Source of the DNA: a virus
DNA length: 62,722 nucleotides
Reading direction: 5' to 3' (one strand)
Virus record (IMG/VR): IMGVR_UViG_3300005826_000008
Span: 1 to 62,722 of that record
The translations under genes and the position numbers were made by a program. Shown here in pieces: positions 115 to 61,782 of the stretch; position 1 is the stretch's first letter; each line of letters opens with the position of its first letter. The notes beneath the pieces are model-generated. The model ran no database searches, was not told the DNA's origin, and worked only from the letters and a program-made list of their open reading frames with translations.

Positions 115-142
115 TTGACGTCAGGGGAGGCGTGCTTACATT
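115..142 (+). promoter_or_regulatory. Predicted promoter for the Ro60 gene (TTGACG-16-TACATT)
   Basis: TTGACG at 115-120 and TACATT at 137-142 are separated by 16 bases. The preceding GG and the GC-rich spacer resemble the promoter at 7635-7662. Six more sites in the window share the TTGACN / TANNTT layout, which is why this is called despite a non-consensus -10. Confidence 0.6.
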
Positions 143-207
143 CTAAATATGGCGCGGTGGTCGCGCTGCGATTTGTTGAATTTTTTCAAACAATAAAGGA
201 GTCTATT

Positions 208-1785
208 ATGGCAAACAAGAGTCTATTTTCAAGCAAGGGAAACAGCAACAAGCATTCGGTTAAGGTAGTTCGTAAGGCGGATACTCATAACTTGGCTGGA
301 GGTACTGCATATAAGTTGTCTGATAAGGCAGCTTTGGCGCAGTATGCTATGACAGGAACTTTCCAGGGAACATTTTATGCTGATGGTAAGAGTCAGTTAA
401 CTAAAGTTTTGGAAATGTCGAATAAGGTTGATGAAGAATTCCTTGCAAAGCTTGCAGTATATTCTAGGCAGCAAGGTTTTATGAAGGATATGCCTGCTGT
501 TCTTGCAGCTGTGGTTGCGGGAAGAGACTCTTCTTTATTGGAGAAGATCTTTCCAAAGGTCGTGGATAATCCAAAGATGGCAAGGAATTTTGTTCAGGTT
601 ATTCGTTCGGGTGCTACAGGACGTAAGTCTCTTGGAACTCGTCCAAAGAAGTTGATGCAAGCATACTTGTCAGGATTGAATGATGTCCAATTGTTCAAGG
701 CAAATATTGGCAACGATCCATCGTTGGCTGATATGATCAAGTTGGTTCACCCAAAGCCAGGCTCCAAGAGCAGAAATGCTTTGTATGCTTATCTTTTGGG
801 TAAGGAACATAGTGTTGAAGCATTGCCTCAATTGGTTAGAGACTTCGAGGTCTTCAAGAAGGAACTTGGGGCAGAAATGCCTGACGTTCCATTCCAGATG
901 TTGACGGCTTTGCCATTGACGAAGGATCACTGGAAGACCATTGCGCGTAATGCAACATGGAATCAAATCAGGCAAAACTTAAACACCTTTGCTCGTCATG
1001 GTGTGTTTGAGGATGAAAAGCTTGTCTCTGCTTTGGCAGAGAAGCTTTCTAACCCTGATCAGGTTAAGAGAGCAAAGGTATTCCCATACCAGTTGTTCAC
1101 TTCTTACCTGAACATTGATTCTAGCGTCCCAAAGAAGTTGTCGATTGCTTTGCAAAAGGCAGCTGATCTTTCTCTTGAGAACATTCCTGAAATGGAAGGT
1201 CAAGTCTATGTAATGGTAGACGTTTCTGGTTCTATGAGTTGGTCAATCACGGGTAACCGTGGATCTGCTACAAGCAAGATGCAGTGCGTTGATGTTGCGG
1301 CATTGATTGCATCTTCAATCTTGCGTAAGAACCCAGAGACTGTTATCCTTCCATTCGATACCAGTGTGCATAAGACTAACTTGAATCCTATGGATTCTAT
1401 TATGACGAATGCCAACATCTTGCGTAAGTTTGGTGGTGGTGGAACGAACTGTTCTCTTCCTTTGGCTCTTCTTAACCAACAAAAGGCAAAGGGCAACCTA
1501 GTTATCTATGTTAGCGATAACGAGAGCTGGGTTGATAGCACTCGCAGTTATGGAAGAGGAACTGAAACCATGAACCAGTGGCAGAAGTTCAAGGGACGCA
1601 ACCCAAAGGCAAAGCTTGTTTGTATTGATTTGAATCCAAATAGTACAACCCAAGCTCACGATCGCCCTGATATTCTCAATGTTGGATCATTTTCTGATAA
1701 TGTGTTTAATGTGGTTTCTACATTCACAAAGTTTGGTAATGATAAGGATCTTTGGGTCTCTGAGATAGAGAAAGTTAGTCTATGA
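208..1785 (+). CDS. rsr: Ro60/TROVE-domain RNA-binding protein
   Basis: A 525-residue protein of the Ro60 family, ring-shaped RNA chaperones that bind Y RNAs and misfolded RNAs and work with exoribonucleases in RNA quality control. The start at 208 (MANKSLFSSK) is chosen because AAAGGAG lies just upstream; a longer frame opens at 115 but overlaps the promoter. The N-terminal two thirds is the HEAT-like TROVE region. The C-terminal third is a von Willebrand A fold with an intact MIDAS motif (DVSGSMSWS near residue 370). Length and domain order match bacterial Ro60. It overlaps the next gene by 4 bases, and a structured RNA candidate follows at 2617. In a phage with a huge tRNA set it may bind phage Y-like RNA or tRNA precursors; that role is inference. 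Confidence 0.93.
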   Translation: MANKSLFSSKGNSNKHSVKVVRKADTHNLAGGTAYKLSDKAALAQYAMTGTFQGTFYADGKSQLTKVLEMSNKVDEEFLAKLAVYSRQQGFMKDMPAVLAAVVAGRDSSLLEKIFPKVVDNPKMARNFVQVIRSGATGRKSLGTRPKKLMQAYLSGLNDVQLFKANIGNDPSLADMIKLVHPKPGSKSRNALYAYLLGKEHSVEALPQLVRDFEVFKKELGAEMPDVPFQMLTALPLTKDHWKTIARNATWNQIRQNLNTFARHGVFEDEKLVSALAEKLSNPDQVKRAKVFPYQLFTSYLNIDSSVPKKLSIALQKAADLSLENIPEMEGQVYVMVDVSGSMSWSITGNRGSATSKMQCVDVAALIASSILRKNPETVILPFDTSVHKTNLNPMDSIMTNANILRKFGGGGTNCSLPLALLNQQKAKGNLVIYVSDNESWVDSTRSYGRGTETMNQWQKFKGRNPKAKLVCIDLNPNSTTQAHDRPDILNVGSFSDNVFNVVSTFTKFGNDKDLWVSEIEKVSL

Positions 1786-3180: not shown

Positions 3181-3677
3181 AGATTTTTCTATTAGAGAAA
3201 CATGTATTTCCTATTAGTGTGCCGTATAAGTATTATTTTGCGTCTAAAGCAGAACTTATGAACCAGTACAATAATTATATTAATTATTCTGATGTCGAAT
3301 GTAAAATGTTCGAATATGAAATTCCTGATGAAAAATTATACTGGTTAATTGTAAAAAATTATATAGAAAAGACCTCGTATCTTTCTTATGAGAATAGAAA
3401 AGAAATAAGTTTGGATCAATGGTGTGTATATTTAGTTGAGTGCTCTGATCATTCTATTTATACTGGTATTACTATTGATGTTAAAAAGAGATTGCAGAAA
3501 CATAACAATGGAACTGGCGCGAAGTATACAGCAGCCAGAAGACCTGTTAAGTTATTAAGAACGATACCTTGTTCGTCTCATTCAGAAGCTTTAAAGCTTG
3601 AAGCGAAGATTAAGAAATTAAAAAGAAGAGCTAAATTGGATTTGATAAAGAGTGGAGACTTAGAGTATGCCTTTTAA
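3177..3677 (+). CDS. GIY-YIG nuclease-domain protein
   Basis: A 166-residue protein with an N-terminal region of unknown type (about residues 1-80) and a C-terminal GIY-YIG nuclease domain: WCVYLVECSDHSIYTGITID, then RLQKHN, GAKYTAARRPV and the EA-LE-KIKKL helix. This is the small YhbQ/UPF0213-like subclass. The catalytic Tyr and Arg positions and a glutamate in the last helix are present. It overlaps both neighbours by a few bases. It may be a homing nuclease or a DNA-repair type nuclease; the family does not settle which. Confidence 0.85.
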   Translation: MKIFLLEKHVFPISVPYKYYFASKAELMNQYNNYINYSDVECKMFEYEIPDEKLYWLIVKNYIEKTSYLSYENRKEISLDQWCVYLVECSDHSIYTGITIDVKKRLQKHNNGTGAKYTAARRPVKLLRTIPCSSHSEALKLEAKIKKLKRRAKLDLIKSGDLEYAF

Positions 3678-4536
3678 GATAAAGCCAGTAGGAAAACAAG
3701 CGAGGATAGCGGGGAGCAAACTTTCTCATGCTCTCATGAATAATCCGCTTCAAATTATAGCAAAAGAGACGCTTGAAGTAATTAAGTCGGGTATGTATTC
3801 TTATGATGAGGATAAGTATGTTAATATCTCAAACCTAATTGATCAATCAGTTAATTATACTGAGTATTGGTCATCTCAACCTACTCTCTTGGTAAGAGAG
3901 ACTTCATCTGTAGTTGAGGTTACTTCTGAGACTACAAACCAGGCTGCGGTTAGGTTATTGAGTGAAGGTCATAAGGATATTGTTGCTTTAAACTTTGCAT
4001 CAGCAACTAATCCAGGAGGAGGGTGGTTGCATGGAGCGGTTGCTCAAGAAGAAGACCTTTGTAGGCGATCTGTTTTATATGAGTGTATAAGAAAACAAAC
4101 GGCTTATTACAATAAGAATATTCCGAATGGTAAGAAAGGTTATACAGATGGAATGATATATTCTCCAGATGTTACTTTCTTTAGAGATGAAGATTATAAA
4201 CTATTAGAAGTACCATATAGTCTATCTATTATTACAGCGCCAGCACCTAATGTTTGGCAAATGGAGGATCCTTCTGAAGATAGATTAATAGAAATCTTCA
4301 AGAGAAGGACTAGGATGATTTTGAGTATTGCGGCTAAGCATAATCACAAAACAATTATATTAGGTGCTTGGGGATGTGGAGCTTTCGGTAATAATGCCCA
4401 AATGGTTGCAGAAGCATTTGATAAAGCCTTAAGAGAGATTCCAGCATTTGAATATGTTTGTTTTGCTGTTTATGATTCGCATAAAGGCAAGCCAATATTT
4501 AATACATTTAACGATTATTTTGCAGGTTTAGAATGA
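3667..4536 (+). CDS. Microbial-type poly(ADP-ribose) glycohydrolase (macrodomain)
   Basis: A 289-residue protein of the microbial PARG family (TIGR02452 type), which removes ADP-ribose from modified proteins. The PARG signature is intact: NPGGGWLHGAVAQEEDLCRR (about residues 116-135), a glycine-rich loop followed by QEE with the catalytic glutamates. Downstream come YSPDVTFFRD and ILGAWGCGAFGNN, both typical of the fold. Its start lies within the last codons of the GIY-YIG gene. With the ADP-ribosylglycohydrolase at 60865 and the NAD genes at 52.5-55 kb it suggests that this phage manages ADP-ribosylation or its breakdown products. Removal of host defensive ADP-ribosylation is an inference. 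Confidence 0.9.
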   Translation: MPFKIKPVGKQARIAGSKLSHALMNNPLQIIAKETLEVIKSGMYSYDEDKYVNISNLIDQSVNYTEYWSSQPTLLVRETSSVVEVTSETTNQAAVRLLSEGHKDIVALNFASATNPGGGWLHGAVAQEEDLCRRSVLYECIRKQTAYYNKNIPNGKKGYTDGMIYSPDVTFFRDEDYKLLEVPYSLSIITAPAPNVWQMEDPSEDRLIEIFKRRTRMILSIAAKHNHKTIILGAWGCGAFGNNAQMVAEAFDKALREIPAFEYVCFAVYDSHKGKPIFNTFNDYFAGLE

Positions 4537-7985: not shown

Positions 7986-7989
7986 TCAT

Positions 7990-8093
7990 GGACTAGCAGC
8001 TCGAAGAAGGAGCACCGGGACTTGAGCGAACAGCATAGAGTTATAAAAAATTCACCCGAAGGTTGTAGGTTAAATTCCTATCTTAGTCCACCA
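7990..8093 (+). tRNA. tRNA with a 35-base anticodon loop (intron-like insert)
   Basis: Acceptor GGACTA/TAGTCC, D stem GCTC/GAGC, T arm GTAGG/CCTAT and CCA are all present. The anticodon stem CGGG (8016-8019) finds its partner CCCG only at 8055-8058, leaving a 35-base loop instead of 7. The loop starts ACTTGAG. If about 28 bases were removed the tRNA would be normal; the identity cannot be fixed until the splice points are known. Confidence 0.6.
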
Positions 8094-8145: not shown

Positions 8146-8216
8146 AGGTACGAGTCAAGGTGACAACAGAGCCTCCAAAACTCTGGAAGAGGGTTCGATT
8201 CCTTCCGTGCCTGCCA
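8146..8216 (+). tRNA. tRNA-Trp (CCA)
   Basis: Acceptor AGGTACG/CGTGCCT, anticodon loop CTCCAAA, T arm GAGGG/CCTTC. The upstream 50 bases hold two short hairpins and no gene. Confidence 0.85.
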
Positions 8217-8282
8217 TCTGAATGCTAGGTTGGGATTACATTTTTATTTGGAAAACAAACATCTCAATCACTTTTTGTCAGA
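8217..8282 (+). repeat. GGATTACATT element, copy 2 (minimal form)
   Basis: Outer helix TCTGA (8217-8221) / TCAGA (8278-8282). Second helix GGTTG/CAATC replaces the GTAG/CTAC of copy 1, keeping pairing. Left box GGGATTACATTT, right box ACATCTCAATC. A small TTTT/AAAA hairpin fills the interior. Confidence 0.72.
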
Positions 8283-8287
8283 TACTA

Positions 8288-8375
8288 TCCCGACTGAATC
8301 GATGGCTGGGACCATCCCTTGGCTGTAAACCAAGTGCCGAAGTGCTATGAGGTTCGATTCCTTCAGGCGGGACCA
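8288..8375 (+). tRNA. tRNA-Tyr (GTA)
   Basis: Anticodon stem CTTGG/CCAAG with loop CTGTAAA and a long variable arm, as expected for bacterial tRNA-Tyr. T arm and CCA are present; the acceptor has one mismatch. Confidence 0.85.
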
Positions 8376-8470: not shown

Positions 8471-8516
8471 GAAAGCACTTTATGTGCCTTGTTCGTTGAC
8501 AATATGATAATACTAT

Positions 8517-8609
8517 GGGCTTCTGGTGTAATCGGAATCGTAAAGGTTCTAACAACATATCTAGCGAGTGAGCTAGAAGTTGCAGGTGCAAATCCTGCGG
8601 AGCCCACCA
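8517..8609 (+). tRNA. Class II tRNA (long variable arm), anticodon uncertain
   Basis: Acceptor GGGCTTC/GGAGCCC, variable arm CTAGC/GCTAG, T stem GCAGG/CCTGC and CCA are all good. The anticodon arm around AAGGTTCTAACAACAT does not pair normally. A Leu or Ser identity is likely from the long variable arm. Confidence 0.65.
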
Positions 8610-8739
8610 ATGGCAAATGCAGTATGGCTTTACATTGCATTATAAGCACGAGGTTATAGGTTCGAGTCCTATTGTCACTGTGTTGACATAGCTCAATTGG
8701 TAGAGCGCGTAAAACTGAAGTCTACATTTTTGTTGCCAT
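8610..8739 (+). tRNA. GGATTACATT element copy 3 holding a permuted tRNA-Ile (TAT)
   Basis: Outer helix ATGGCAA (8610-8616) / TTGCCAT (8733-8739). Inside, a tRNA 3' half (8637-8679: anticodon loop ATTATAA, variable region, T arm ATAGG/CCTAT, acceptor strand) precedes a 5' half (8682-8710: acceptor strand GTTGACA, TA, D arm GCTC/GAGC, CGT). Joined 5'-to-3', the anticodon stem becomes CGTGC/GCACG with U33 and anticodon TAT. One acceptor mismatch remains and the linker between tRNA ends is only 2 bases, with no CCA. The gene order is reversed compared with any normal tRNA. Confidence 0.7.
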
Positions 8740-8745
8740 TTATTT

Positions 8746-9036: not shown

Positions 9037-9114
9037 ATATCCGTAGCTTTAAAATACAAAGCACCACACATGTAGTGTGGATGGTTGTCGGTGTAAACCC
9101 GATCGGATATACCA
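9037..9114 (+). tRNA. tRNA-Thr (TGT) with A at position 33
   Basis: Acceptor ATATCCG/CGGATAT, D stem GCTT/AAGC, anticodon stem CCACA/TGTGG, T arm GTCGG/CCGAT, CCA. The loop is CATGTAG, giving TGT with A instead of the near-universal U33. A second tRNA-Thr with normal U33 is at 13565. Confidence 0.72.
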
Positions 9115-9261
9115 TGGCAAATGCCGTTTGGCTTTACATTGCATTCGAAGCGCGAGGGCGTTGGTTCAATTCCAACTGCGGGTGCCAGTTTTAAAAATAC
9201 ACGCCCGCATGGTGTATGATGGACAGCACACGAAAATAGAGTCTTACATTTTTGTTGCCAT
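9114..9261 (+). tRNA. GGATTACATT element copy 4 holding a permuted tRNA-Arg (TCG)
   Basis: Outer helix ATGGCAA (9114-9120) / TTGCCAT (9255-9261). The 3' half (9141-9187) has anticodon loop ATTCGAA, variable region, T arm GTTGG/CCAAC, acceptor TGCGGGT and an encoded GCCA end. A 15-base linker follows, then the 5' half (9203-9232): acceptor GCCCGCA and D arm GTGT/GCAC. The acceptor pairs over all seven positions (one G-T). The anticodon stem is rebuilt if the 5' part ends at CG and the 3' part starts at TGC. Among the clearest permuted units because it keeps CCA. Confidence 0.75.
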
Positions 9262-13307: not shown

Positions 13308-13557
13308 TTTGATGAATGTAGTTAGGGATTACATTTAACAATAAATAACGCGATAATATGGTGAATAACCGCCACTCCGAAACATGTTATGAGTGGTAAA
13401 CCAGATCTTAAAATATATATGTCTCGTGATCTTGTAGCGAGTAAAGCTTGCAAGACCCGTATGATTCTAAAGGTGATTACTTCTTATGAAAATAAGGTGG
13501 GTTAAACTGAATCAACATTCCTTTCGGGGAAACATCTCTACATTCTTTGTCATCAAA
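13308..13557 (+). repeat. GGATTACATT element, copy 7 (long insert)
   Basis: Outer helix TTTGATGA (13308-13315) / TCATCAAA (13550-13557), eight base pairs. Second helix GTAG/CTAC, left box GGGATTACATTT with hairpin ATTTA/TAAAT, right box AAACATCTCTACATT. The ~180-base interior holds hairpin CCACTC/GAGTGG and others but no tRNA halves that I can assign. Confidence 0.65.
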
Positions 13558-15983: not shown

Positions 15984-16170
15984 GTAACAAATGTCAGAAA
16001 GGATTACATTTTATTCTGATTAAATAAACAGGTGGGTTCAATTCCCACGCCTCCAACCAAATTCCATACTATGTATGGTGCCCCAGGGCTCTGAGGGAGC
16101 AAGTATCGGAGCTGCTTTATTGGAGGTGCAGGCGCCAGTCAAACTAATCTTTTCACCCTTTCGTTGTTAC
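15984..16170 (+). tRNA. GGATTACATT element copy 10 holding a permuted tRNA (Ile GAT?)
   Basis: Outer helix GTAACAA/TTGTTAC; second helix GAAAG/CTTTTC. Anticodon-like arm TTATT/AATAA with loop CTGATTA, T arm GTGGG/CCCAC, acceptor GCCTCCA and ACCA (to 16059) precede a 61-base linker and the opposite acceptor strand TGGAGGT (16121-16127). The D arm is not evident, so function as a tRNA is uncertain. The linker contains hairpins CCATAC/GTATGG and GCTC/GAGC. Confidence 0.55.
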
Positions 16171-16923: not shown

Positions 16924-18093
16924 ATGAACAAGACACATGTGAATGTTGGAACAATCGGTCACGTAGATCATGGCAAAACAACATTAACTGCGGCTATACT
17001 TGCAGTACAGTCGCAAGTTGGATTAGCGAGGGTTAAGTCGTATGCGGATATTGCAAAGGGCGGAACAGTCAGAGATGAGAATAAGACTGTTACAATTGCA
17101 GTTTCGCATGTCGAATATGAATCTGATGCTCGTCATTATGCTCACATCGATTGTCCGGGACATGCCGACTACATTAAGAACATGATTACTGGTGCTGCTC
17201 AAATGGATGGCGCTGTATTGTTGGTAGATGGTAGTCAAGGTCCACAACATCAAACAAAAGAACACATTCTACTTGCTCGTCAAGTTGGTGTGGAAAAGAT
17301 TGTTGTGTTTATTAATAAGATAGATGTTTCTGATCCAGAGCTTCTTGAGCTTGTAGTAATTGAAACATCTGAATATCTTGAGGCACAAGGCTACGGAGAT
17401 TCTCCTATTGTTATGGGTTCCGCACTTAAAGCATTGCGTGATCCGGTTAATGAGGGGCAATGCATCAAGGATTTGATTGCAGCTATTGATTCTCATATTC
17501 CGGATCCAAAGCGTGATTTTGAGTCTCCTTTTATGCTTCCTATTGAAGGGGTGCATACAATTGAAGGGCGCGGAACAGTTGTTACTGGAAGGATAGCTCG
17601 TGGAGTTCTTCCTGTTGGTTCTAAGGTTGAGATTATTGGTCTTGTAGATGAAGACTCAAAACCAAGAGTTGTAGTTGTAACAGGTATCCAAATGTTTCAT
17701 AAGGATCAAAAAGAAGCTAGAGCGGGTGAAAATTGTGGACTTTTGCTTCGTGGAGTTAAGAGGGACGAGGTAGTTCGTGGGCAAGTATTAATTGCTCCAG
17801 GTTCTGTTAGCCCAAAGACTAAAGCGAGAGCAGAGTTGTTTATGATTCCAGGAAAAGAAGGTGGTAGACATACTCCAATTTTCCCAGGTTATAAACCACA
17901 ATTCTTTTTTGGAACAACTGATGTTACAGGGGCAGTGACTAACTTTGGTGAATTGAAAATGCTTTCTCCTGGAGAGCACGCTGAAGTTAGTCTCGAACTT
18001 CTAAAACCTGTTGGAATGGAAGCTGGAATGAGGTTTGCTGTTCGTGAAGGCGGACAGACTGTTGCAGCAGGTATAGTTGTGAGTGTTGAGTAA
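16924..18093 (+). CDS. tuf: Translation elongation factor Tu
   Basis: A 389-residue EF-Tu, the GTPase that delivers aminoacyl-tRNA to the ribosome. All three domains are present: G1 GHVDHGKTT, G3 DCPGHADY, G4 NKID (NKCD in most bacteria), G5 SALKAL; domain 2 from about residue 205; domain 3 ending FAVREGGQTVAAGIVV. Switch I is divergent: the usual RGITI is replaced by NKTVTI, keeping the threonine that binds Mg. AAGG precedes the start. It sits within the tRNA array. The divergence suggests long residence in the phage line and perhaps escape from host factors that act on EF-Tu. Confidence 0.97.
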   Translation: MNKTHVNVGTIGHVDHGKTTLTAAILAVQSQVGLARVKSYADIAKGGTVRDENKTVTIAVSHVEYESDARHYAHIDCPGHADYIKNMITGAAQMDGAVLLVDGSQGPQHQTKEHILLARQVGVEKIVVFINKIDVSDPELLELVVIETSEYLEAQGYGDSPIVMGSALKALRDPVNEGQCIKDLIAAIDSHIPDPKRDFESPFMLPIEGVHTIEGRGTVVTGRIARGVLPVGSKVEIIGLVDEDSKPRVVVVTGIQMFHKDQKEARAGENCGLLLRGVKRDEVVRGQVLIAPGSVSPKTKARAELFMIPGKEGGRHTPIFPGYKPQFFFGTTDVTGAVTNFGELKMLSPGEHAEVSLELLKPVGMEAGMRFAVREGGQTVAAGIVVSVE

Positions 18094-18226: not shown

Positions 18227-18301
18227 GGGATCGTGGCGCAATGGTAGCGCAGTTGGCTTTTAACCAATTGGTTCTCGGTTCGAGTCCGAGCGGTCCCACC
18301 A
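18227..18301 (+). tRNA. tRNA-Lys (TTT)
   Basis: Acceptor GGGATCG/CGGTCCC, D stem GCGC/GCGC, anticodon stem TTGG/CCAA with loop CTTTTAA, T arm CTCGG/CCGAG, CCA. Confidence 0.93.
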
Positions 18302-18488
18302 AAAACGAATGAAGTTAGGATTACATTACAATACTGACCCTAAGGTAGTCGACAGTTTCGCGAGGAACTGCACGATGGCGCTATGAGAGTTATTGACTTG
18401 ATTAGTGCGGGGCGAACTAGGGAAGCTCTTACAAAAGAGCCCTTAATGTGCCGGTCACACACGTATCTTAGCGATCTCTTGTCGTTTT
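18302..18488 (+). repeat. GGATTACATT element, copy 12 (long insert with GCGA loop)
   Basis: Outer helix AAAACGA (18302-18308) / TCGTTTT (18482-18488). Left box AGGATTACATT. The interior includes CAGTTTC-GCGA-GGAACTG, again a helix closed by a GNRA tetraloop, and GCTCTT/AAGAGC. No clear tRNA halves. Confidence 0.6.
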
Positions 18489-24796: not shown

Positions 24797-24939
24797 GAAA
24801 CAAATGCTCGATAGGATTACATTTACAATAGCATTCCAAGCCGGAGATGGAGGTCCGATTCCTTCTGCGCGGTTTATATCTGCGCATAGTTTAATGGTAT
24901 GACTCCGTCGTTAAATATCTTGTCACTTCTTGTTGTTTC
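24797..24939 (+). tRNA. Element copy 14 holding a permuted tRNA-Gly (TCC)
   Basis: Outer helix GAAACAA (24797-24803) / TTGTTTC (24933-24939); second helix GATAG/CTTGTC. The 3' half (24831-24872: GC ATTCCAA GC CGG, T arm GGAGG/CCTTC, acceptor TGCGCGG) precedes a 7-base linker and the 5' half (24880-24907: CTGCGCA, TA, D arm GTT/GAC, CCG). Joining them gives a perfect anticodon stem CCGGC/GCCGG with U33 and anticodon TCC, and a full acceptor helix. This is the best reconstruction across the proposed splice point. Confidence 0.78.
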
Positions 24940-24962: not shown

Positions 24963-25292
24963 ATGAATACAGAAAATTCTACATTAGATGGTGATGTTCC
25001 AGATCCTTGCCCTATTTGTGGTAGACCGAATTATCACCCATCAGATCATCATATGGTTCCTAAGTCAAGAGGCGGAAGAGCTACTGAAACTATTTGTGCA
25101 GATTGTCATAGGGCAATTCATTCTTTATTCACCAATAAAGAATTAGAAGAGAAATATAATACTCCAGAGGTTTTGCTTGATAATGAATCTTTTGCGAAGA
25201 TGATTAAGTTTATTTCAAAACAAGATCCTAGAGGTAGAGTTACAACTAAAAAAAGCAAAGACCGAATTAAAAGAGGAAGAGGAAGACCATGA
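24963..25292 (+). CDS. HNH endonuclease (109 aa)
   Basis: A compact HNH protein: CPICGRPNYH with a zinc pair, then SDHHMVPKSRGGRATETICADCHRAIHSLF, where DHH, N/H and the closing CxxCH match the HNH core (the motif is quoted in two parts: SDHHMVPKSRGG and ICADCHRAIHSLF). The basic tail (KKSKDRIKRGRGRP) should aid DNA binding. Overlaps the next gene by 4 bases. Confidence 0.85.
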   Translation: MNTENSTLDGDVPDPCPICGRPNYHPSDHHMVPKSRGGRATETICADCHRAIHSLFTNKELEEKYNTPEVLLDNESFAKMIKFISKQDPRGRVTTKKSKDRIKRGRGRP

Positions 25293-46634: not shown

Positions 46635-47555
46635 ATGTCAAAAACAGATATGATAAGAGACTTGCGAGCTTTAACTCAAGCTGGATTAAAAGACTGTAAA
46701 GATGCCCTTGAAGAATGTGGATGGGATCTTAATAATGCAATTGATCTTATTAAGAAGAAGGGGCAAAATGTTGTTTCTGGAAGTAAGATTGCTGCAGAAG
46801 GCATTGTTCGCGCAATGCATTTTGGAAGTGATAAAGTTGCTGGTATGGTTGAAGTAAATTGTGTAACTGATTTTGTTGCCAGGATGCCTGAAATGAAATC
46901 AATTGCTGACAAATGTCTTTTATCTTTGTATCAACATATTTTAGTTGATAATCCTACGTGGAGTGTTACTCCAGAGATTGATTCAGAAAGAAAAGAACTT
47001 CTATCTAAAACGAAAGAAAATATAGAAGTACGTCGTTGGTGGGTAGAACAATTTGTTGGTAAACATGGTAAAGTATTTATCTATGTTCATCCAAATAATG
47101 AAGAAGGAAAGATTGGTGTTTTGTTATCTCTATCAGCCTCTTCTGAGGAAGTAGCCGAGAGTGATAAGTTTAGTGAATTGGGTGAGCAATTGGCAATGCA
47201 GGTGGCGGCAATGAGACCATTGGCTGTTGAGCCTTGTAAATTAGATCCTAATATTATTGCAAGACAAAATGCAATCTTTGAAGCTCAAATTGATGAAATG
47301 AAAAAGCCAGAAGAGGCTAAAAATAGAATCATGGAAGGTAAAAAGAGTAAATGGTATAAAGAAGTTTGTTTATTAGATCAGCAGTCTGTTGTATATCCAA
47401 AGATTTCTGTTTCAAGAGCAATTGAAAGTGTTTCAAAAGATCTTAATGGGAGTATTGAGGTTATTAATTTTGTTCGCTGTGAGGTTGGTGAAGGTATAGA
47501 AATTCAATCAGAAGACTTTGCTGATGAAGTAAACAAAATGGCTGGTGTATTATGA
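46635..47555 (+). CDS. tsf: Translation elongation factor Ts
   Basis: A 306-residue EF-Ts, the nucleotide exchange factor for EF-Tu. The UBA-like N-terminus LRALTQAGLKDCKDALEECG and the core motif VNCVTDFVARMPEM with the TDFV sequence that inserts into EF-Tu are intact. The C-terminal half (WYKEVCLLDQQSVVYPKISV, then VINFVRCEVGEGIE) matches the end of bacterial EF-Ts. Carrying both tuf and tsf suggests that the phage EF-Tu works with its own exchange factor. Own promoter and AAGGAG site. Confidence 0.96.
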   Translation: MSKTDMIRDLRALTQAGLKDCKDALEECGWDLNNAIDLIKKKGQNVVSGSKIAAEGIVRAMHFGSDKVAGMVEVNCVTDFVARMPEMKSIADKCLLSLYQHILVDNPTWSVTPEIDSERKELLSKTKENIEVRRWWVEQFVGKHGKVFIYVHPNNEEGKIGVLLSLSASSEEVAESDKFSELGEQLAMQVAAMRPLAVEPCKLDPNIIARQNAIFEAQIDEMKKPEEAKNRIMEGKKSKWYKEVCLLDQQSVVYPKISVSRAIESVSKDLNGSIEVINFVRCEVGEGIEIQSEDFADEVNKMAGVL

Positions 47556-60864: not shown

Positions 60865-61782
60865 ATGTGTAATTGTTTAGTTGGCGCATGCATTGGGGAT
60901 GCCTTGGGGATGCCTTTTGAAGGAATGGATCGTGCTAATAAGTTATTGGTTAACTGGGATGGTTTAACTTATTTGCCAAGCAAAAGTCATAAGCTTGAGG
61001 CGGGGATGTATACAGATGACGGACAATTAAGTATAATTGTTGCCAATTCTCTTATAGAATGCCGAGAATTTAACCCGTATGACCTTGCCCAGCGTTATCA
61101 GGAATGGTTTTTTTCAGGTAATCCAAGAGGTTTTGGACGTACCACACGAATGGCAATGAATGCATTAAAGGATGGTGTTCATTGGAGCGAGTCTGGAATT
61201 AAAGGTTCTTATGGAAATGCAACTGCAATGAGGGCGGCTCCTTTTGGGGTTTTTTTTAGAAATGATATGAAATCGCTTATTGAAGCGGTAAGTATAGATA
61301 GTGCTATTACTCATAACTCTCCTGATGCGAAGGCAGGAGCTATAGCTATTGCTGTTGTAACTGCTTTTGCTGCAAATGGTGATACTGAGGATCTTCTTGA
61401 TAGGGTTTTTGAAAAATTGCCGGATTCTGCAATTAGAAAAACAATCTCCACCCTTGACCTCTTAATTTACTCTGATTATGTTAAGCCAAGGGAAGCGTTG
61501 CGTGCACTTGGTACAAGTGCAAATATCAAGGAAACTGTGCCTGCTGCGCTTTATTGTTTTTTAAAATTTGATAATTATGCTGATGCCGTTAGAACAGCAA
61601 TTAGAGCTGGTGGAGACGTAGACACAACGGCAAGTATTATTGGGGCTTTGTTTGGTGCAAAAGATGGTATAAAAAATATTCCTCAAGAATGGATAGATGG
61701 TGTTGAGAATTTTGAGTTGTTAATTGAGCTTGATAGTAAATTGTATAATAGAACAAATTACACATTTTTTCCTAGGAGTTAA
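60865..61782 (+). CDS. ADP-ribosylglycohydrolase (DraG/ARH family)
   Basis: A 305-residue ARH enzyme, which removes ADP-ribose from arginine or other acceptors. GACIGDALGMPFEG at the N-terminus, MYTDDGQLSIIVAN (metal-binding TDD), SYGNATAMRAAPFGVFF, ITHNSPDAKAGAIA and GGDVDTTASIIGALFGA (second metal site) are all in place. It complements the PARG at 3667 and the NAD genes. Confidence 0.95.
   Translation: MCNCLVGACIGDALGMPFEGMDRANKLLVNWDGLTYLPSKSHKLEAGMYTDDGQLSIIVANSLIECREFNPYDLAQRYQEWFFSGNPRGFGRTTRMAMNALKDGVHWSESGIKGSYGNATAMRAAPFGVFFRNDMKSLIEAVSIDSAITHNSPDAKAGAIAIAVVTAFAANGDTEDLLDRVFEKLPDSAIRKTISTLDLLIYSDYVKPREALRALGTSANIKETVPAALYCFLKFDNYADAVRTAIRAGGDVDTTASIIGALFGAKDGIKNIPQEWIDGVENFELLIELDSKLYNRTNYTFFPRS

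What the first reader, a model, noticed from the sequence alone, without database searches (positions are those of the whole stretch)
24797..24939. Permuted tRNA-Gly (TCC) rebuilds a perfect anticodon stem across the proposed splice
5' half ends ...GAC T CCG (24901-24907) and the 3' half starts GC ATTCCAA GC CGG (24831-24844). Joined, the stem is CCGGC/GCCGG with U33 and TCC. The acceptor CTGCGCA/TGCGCGG and T arm are also intact, although the halves lie in reverse order on DNA with a 7-base linker.
Basis: seen in the sequence. Interest (0 to 1): 0.85.

Follow-up and report, generated by a model that had tools for sequence, protein, structure and literature searches.

The report
Phage Y RNA mimicking a tRNA
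The reversed tRNA-like stretch is real, but it is most likely the tRNA-shaped head of a phage 'Y RNA', an RNA that binds the Ro60 protein; its notable feature is a complete anticodon arm, which the Y RNA consensus lacks and which recurs in many Ro60-carrying phages.

Summary
In detail: joining 24880-24907 to 24831-24872 gives a complete tRNA-Gly(UCC) cloverleaf. The interpretation (a permuted tRNA gene spliced into a mature tRNA) is probably wrong. The exact coordinates 24797-24939 are a YrlA-type Y RNA: a closing helix (GAAACAA/TTGTTTC), the conserved ATGC...GGATTACATT stem motif, and a tRNA-like head that Y RNAs are known to carry in circularly permuted order. The same contig encodes a Ro60 protein (115-1785) and about a dozen sibling Y RNAs, two of which also have a permuted cloverleaf with anticodon arm (Ile-UAU 8609-8740, Arg-UCG 9114-9261). 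One sibling matches Rfam YrlA end to end (42.9 bits, below the curated cut-off); the anticodon arm is an insertion relative to that consensus. A covariance model of the variant finds it in Ro60-encoding huge phages and in isolates (I3, Sparky, Forza, RHph_TM30, phiTY18). The 29 curated anticodon arms keep five pairs, U33 and, in 28, R37, through covariation. No tRNA-splicing endonuclease was found in 14 records. Best reading: a Ro60-bound tRNA mimic that presents an anticodon loop to tRNA-acting proteins, possibly an anticodon-nuclease decoy. New variant of a known kind; the primary YrlA papers could not be read.

The parts
24797..24939 (+). Whole element: YrlA-type Y RNA with anticodon-bearing, circularly permuted tRNA-like domain
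   Evidence: CM R1 79.9 bits, E 2.8e-20 (this copy is one of the 13 sequences used to build R1); boundaries set by closing helix
24797..24803 (+). Closing helix P1, 5' strand GAAACAA
   Evidence: pairs with 24933-24939; siblings have different but complementary P1 sequences
24933..24939 (+). Closing helix P1, 3' strand TTGTTTC
24804..24830 (+). Conserved Y-stem 5' strand: ATGC ... GATAGGAT-TAC-ATTTA ... (putative Ro60-binding region)
   Evidence: ATGC and TTACA nearly invariant in 13 aligned relatives; folds with 24912-24924
24908..24932 (+). Y-stem 3' strand TCGTTAAATATCTTGTC...
24831..24844 (+). Upper anticodon arm (GC, loop ATTCCAA, anticodon TCC) and 3' strand GCCGG
   Evidence: pairs with CCG 24905-24907
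24849..24865 (+). T arm GGAGG TCCGATT CCTTC
24866..24872 (+). Acceptor 3' strand TGCGCGG
24873..24879 (+). Linker TTTATAT closing the acceptor hairpin
24880..24886 (+). Acceptor 5' strand CTGCGCA
24889..24903 (+). D arm GTTT AATGGTA TGAC
24905..24907 (+). Anticodon stem 27-29, CCG
115..1785 (+). Ro60/Rsr protein (TROVE + vWA_Ro60 domains), expected partner
   Evidence: PF05731 44.6 bits, PF25045 61.9 bits, both above cut-off; 50% identity over 98% to the TROVE protein of Myxococcus phage Mx1
8609..8740 (+). Sibling Y RNA, anticodon arm UAU
   Evidence: Rfam YrlA full length 42.9 bits, E 3.7e-8; R1 119 bits
9114..9261 (+). Sibling Y RNA, anticodon arm UCG, encoded GCCA end
   Evidence: R1 105 bits
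11823..11942 (+). Sibling Y RNA, tRNA-like head without anticodon arm
   Evidence: R1 57.5 bits
15816..15939 (+). Sibling Y RNA, T arm and acceptor hairpin, reduced D arm
   Evidence: R1 44.8 bits; fold
15984..16170 (+). Sibling Y RNA, T arm, encoded ACCA, long linker
   Evidence: R1 44.2 bits
14884..15009 (+). Sibling Y RNA, T-like arm with TGAAAAT loop
   Evidence: R1 40.9 bits
16249..16392 (+). Sibling Y RNA, T-like arm, encoded ACCA
   Evidence: R1 33.2 bits
45018..45130 (+). Sibling Y RNA, T arm plus UUCG-capped acceptor stub
   Evidence: R1 25.1 bits; fold z -3.9
8216..8283 (+). Short Y RNA without tRNA-like head
   Evidence: P1 ATCTGA/TCAGAT plus motif; R1 20.5 bits
7840..7907 (+). Short Y RNA without tRNA-like head
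   Evidence: R1 20.4 bits
10197..10266 (+). Short Y RNA without tRNA-like head
   Evidence: P1 TACCGA/TCGGTA plus motif
13308..13557 (+). Large Y-stem element, other head
   Evidence: P1 8 bp plus motif
18302..18488 (+). Y-stem element with non-tRNA head
   Evidence: P1 AAAACGA/TCGTTTT plus motif; relative at L002 3391-3593

Best explanation
24797-24939 encodes a YrlA-type Y RNA. Its 5' and 3' ends pair into the stem that the phage's own Ro60 protein should bind (inferred from homology). Its head is a circularly permuted tRNA fold (T arm, acceptor hairpin, D arm) that here also includes a complete anticodon arm; the Y stem is inserted in the 5' strand of the anticodon stem. It most likely works as an unspliced tRNA mimic: it tethers Ro60 to proteins that recognise tRNA, and the anticodon arm lets it engage, or decoy, proteins that read anticodon loops (modification enzymes, synthetases, or host anticodon nucleases). 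Shown: anatomy, homology, Ro60 co-occurrence, covariation. Inferred: Ro60 binding, lack of splicing, decoy or tether function.
For: Sibling 8610-8742 matches Rfam YrlA end to end, E 3.7e-8, with the anticodon arm as the insertion. Ro60 in the same contig. Over a dozen copies share the Y stem, with heads ranging from none to a full cloverleaf. TROVE in 11 of 12 Y-RNA-bearing records, the exception being a 62 kb fragment (only 5 over the Pfam cut-off). The variant found independently by pattern in IMG/VR huge phages and near Ro60 genes of isolates such as Sparky, RHph_TM30 and I3. The 29 curated arms: 15 distinct stems, all five pairs kept with several pair types; G37 only with G36 (p 1e-5). 3D work in the literature already treats bacterial Y RNA as a circular permutation of tRNA (PMC11472068), and a YrlA-as-inhibitor-of-anticodon-nuclease idea is published (PMC7790460).
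Against: The YrlA match is below Rfam's curated cut-off in every record searched, and the Gly copy itself is not hit by the Rfam model. Gly is the most divergent of the three in this window (79.9 against 119 and 105 bits) and R1 was trained on it. Thermodynamic folding alone gives the Y stem but not the cloverleaf, z -1.3. About half of a subset of relatives encode CCA at the acceptor end, more than a pure mimic needs. No expression or binding data exist. The curated arms were partly chosen for pairing, so the shuffle test overstates.
Confidence: 0.9

Rival explanations
1. A true circularly permuted tRNA gene: the transcript is cut at both sides of the Y stem, circularised, then opened at the linker by RNase P/Z to give a mature tRNA-Gly(UCC), as in Cyanidioschyzon.
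For: Perfect rebuilt cloverleaf; anticodon arms obey tRNA rules for U33 and 36/37; CCA encoded in about half of a subset of relatives; ATP-grasp RNA ligases in 7 of 14 records.
Against: No tRNA-intron endonuclease in 14 records; no bulge-helix-bulge seen at the junction by eye; flanks are a conserved stem present on heads that are not tRNAs; acceptor closed by tetraloops in some relatives; C1-G72 and U2-G71 do not fit the glycine acceptor identity known for E. coli (own knowledge).
Confidence: 0.03
2. A two-piece tRNA: RNase P and RNase Z open the acceptor loop, the halves stay paired through the Y stem, and the product is aminoacylated, as two-piece tmRNA is.
For: GCCA or ACCA encoded directly after the acceptor strand in Arg and in several relatives.
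Against: Gly and Ile here have no CCA; linker only 2 nt in Ile and UUCG in Sparky; Ser(GCU) and Leu(UAG) anticodons sit on class I bodies without a long variable arm.
Confidence: 0.06
3. Remnant of two tandem identical tRNA-Gly genes whose outer halves decayed.
For: The order 3' half - spacer - 5' half is what this would leave.
Against: Three such loci in one window and many in other phages, all with the junction at 28 or 29 in the copies parsed and conserved complementary flanks.
Confidence: 0.01

Closest known systems
YrlA bacterial Y RNAs (Rfam RF02553; structure 6CU1)
   Same: Closing stem with conserved motif, permuted tRNA-like head (T arm, acceptor hairpin, D arm), Ro60 gene in the same genome
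   Different: Carries an anticodon arm of 5 bp plus 7-nt loop that is an insertion relative to the Rfam consensus; the review held describes only D, T and acceptor arms (PMC8394870)
Circularly permuted tRNA genes of algae and an archaeon (PMC3978253)
   Same: 3' half before 5' half with a short linker between acceptor strands
   Different: Those form a BHB motif cut by tRNA-splicing endonuclease; here none was seen and no such enzyme was found
Two-piece (permuted) tmRNA
   Same: Permuted acceptor end, encoded CCA in some relatives
   Different: No tag-coding part seen; attached to a Y stem; the only match to the permuted tmRNA model in the region scanned is chance-level (E 5) and lies at 18274-18373, not here

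Membership tests
YrlA / bacterial Y RNA | 5' and 3' ends pair into a long stem with the conserved Y motif | tested here: met
YrlA / bacterial Y RNA | tRNA-like head in permuted order (T arm, acceptor, D arm) | tested here: met
YrlA / bacterial Y RNA | Match to Rfam RF02553 above the curated cut-off | tested here: not met
   sibling 42.9 bits against 69; Gly copy not hit; no record of the group reaches 69. So filed as a YrlA-type variant, not as an RF02553 member
YrlA / bacterial Y RNA | Ro60/Rsr encoded by the same genome | tested here: met
YrlA / bacterial Y RNA | Physical binding to Ro60 | not testable with these tools
   needs gel shift or CLIP
Circularly permuted tRNA gene | Rebuilt cloverleaf across the junction | tested here: met
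Circularly permuted tRNA gene | BHB motif and splicing endonuclease | tested here: not met
   endonuclease absent from 14 records, which may be fragments; BHB judged by eye on the flanks. The host's enzymes are unknown
Circularly permuted tRNA gene | Circular intermediate and mature tRNA | not testable with these tools
   needs RNA data

The most novel reading that the evidence does not exclude
Ro60-encoding phages carry arrays of Y RNAs whose heads display a repertoire of real anticodon loops (U34-enriched, obeying the 36/37 rule), serving as tethered decoys or baits for host anticodon nucleases during infection.
Probability: 0.3. Interest if true: 0.78.

Novelty: new variant of a known kind. 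Interest (0 to 1): 0.57.

Why it matters
It explains an apparent viral permuted tRNA gene without any new splicing, and it links phage Ro60 genes to a repeated, covarying class of anticodon-bearing Y RNAs. That makes the published but untested idea that YrlA inhibits anticodon nucleases (PMC7790460) directly testable, including in laboratory phages such as mycobacteriophages I3 and Sparky.

Tried and rejected
Group I or other self-splicing intron: flanks only about 35 and 30 nt, no Rfam intron hit. BHB splicing: no 3-4-3 pattern by eye; no endonuclease. Tandem duplication remnant: rejected by siblings and covariation. A search for relatives with the window's Ro60 protein in IMG/VR gave none; that method finds close relatives only. 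The exact motif pattern gave nothing; looser patterns worked. The same pattern in 84,980 cellular genomes gave 7 hits, none with the Y motif on inspection. Primary YrlA papers (Chen 2014, Wang 2018, Sim 2018, Sim 2020) are not held, so I could not check whether they already show an anticodon arm in phage Y RNAs.

Full report
Check of the observation. The halves, anticodon arm, acceptor stem and 7-base linker are exactly as described. ARAGORN on the linear window does not call anything at 24831-24907 but calls the joined sequence tRNA-Gly(TCC). A purpose-written permuted-cloverleaf scan found none in ten shuffles of 682 kb and three in this window: Ile-UAU, Arg-UCG and this Gly-UCC.

What surrounds it. 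The Ile and Arg copies share flanks, and their ends pair: ATGGCAA/TTGCCAT there, GAAACAA/TTGTTTC here. The same frame (P1, ATGC or ATGT, a few bases, GGATTACATT) recurs over a dozen times, usually between tRNA genes, with heads that range from nothing to a full cloverleaf. So the flanks are not an intron but a conserved RNA stem.

Identity. A permissive Rfam scan matched 8610-8742 to YrlA, full length, 42.9 bits against a gathering score of 69, with the anticodon arm as an insertion. The contig's ORF at 115-1785 is a Ro60 protein. Bacterial Y RNAs bind Ro60 and carry a tRNA-like domain resembling the D, T and acceptor arms (PMC8394870); structure comparison describes that domain as a circular permutation of tRNA (PMC11472068). 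This explains the reversed order.

Relatives. Two degenerate patterns brought in huge-phage contigs of IMG/VR. The second required only loop and 3'-strand letters, yet the distinct anticodon-arm elements it brought in from outside the window have the complete five-pair stem where I parsed or read it (L079 and L080 are the same sequence). TROVE is found in 11 of 12 such records, with 5 over the Pfam cut-off. A covariance model built from 13 copies hits all 16 records tried and all 10 Ro60-carrying isolates tried, although some of those hits are partial and may be ordinary tRNAs. Anticodon arms were read in I3, Forza, phiTY18, Pumpernickel, Gurke and, by eye, Marchewka, and in Sparky and RHph_TM30. 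The closest Ro60 relative, Myxococcus phage Mx1, has matching Y RNAs in which no anticodon arm could be parsed, so the arm is not universal.

Anticodon arm. In 29 curated arms (15 distinct stems) all five pairs hold, with three pair types at 28:42 and 30:40, and U33 is invariant; no shuffle of 20,000 reaches this. Because most arms were accepted partly for pairing, T33 and R37, the shuffle overstates; some automatic parses of the D arm failed and were corrected by hand. G37 occurs only after G36 (8 of 10 against 0 of 19, p 1e-5), a tRNA rule that the search did not impose. U34 is enriched against linear tRNAs of the same loci (18 of 29 against 62 of 172, p 0.013; with the tRNA counts), a weak result on related sequences.

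Against splicing. No PF01974 endonuclease in 14 records; RtcB in one; ATP-grasp RNA ligases in seven over the cut-off, so ligation alone is possible. Several relatives have acceptor ends closed by very short loops and no CCA. About half of a subset of copies do encode CCA, which keeps a two-piece aminoacylated form open.

Mechanism. Most likely the RNA stays whole, is held by Ro60 at the stem, and presents a tRNA-like head with an anticodon loop. Whether it recruits tRNA enzymes or diverts anticodon nucleases is inference; the latter follows a suggestion in PMC7790460.

Novelty. Y RNAs in phages and their permuted tRNA mimicry are known. The anticodon arm is absent from the Rfam consensus and from the review text held; I could not read the primary papers, so 'new variant' carries that caveat.

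Noticed in passing
window 18302-18488; L002 3391-3593: A Y-stem element whose non-tRNA head contains short strings that resemble 23S rRNA from memory (CCTAAGGTAG, CTGCACGA-TGGCG); its relative in L002 keeps the hairpin but fewer of those letters. No Rfam LSU hit.
   Followed up: partly
window 13308-13557; L002 998-1214; L003 372-644: A second large Y-stem element class whose heads look alike in window and L002 (AGTAAAGCTT-CAAG region); the L003 element is of similar size and may be a third member.
   Followed up: no
window 16924-18093 and 46635-47555: Phage-encoded EF-Tu (three domains) and EF-Ts.
   Followed up: no
window 7986-8093, 8146-8218, 8290-8375, 8505-8610: Odd tRNA-like genes missed by ARAGORN, some with enlarged anticodon or variable regions (read by eye).
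   Followed up: no
window 24963-25292: HNH endonuclease gene directly downstream of the element; relatives in L002 and L003 also lie in tRNA arrays.
   Followed up: partly
window 3667-4536 and 60865-61782: PARG-like and ADP-ribosylglycohydrolase genes, suggesting ADP-ribose reversal functions.
   Followed up: no
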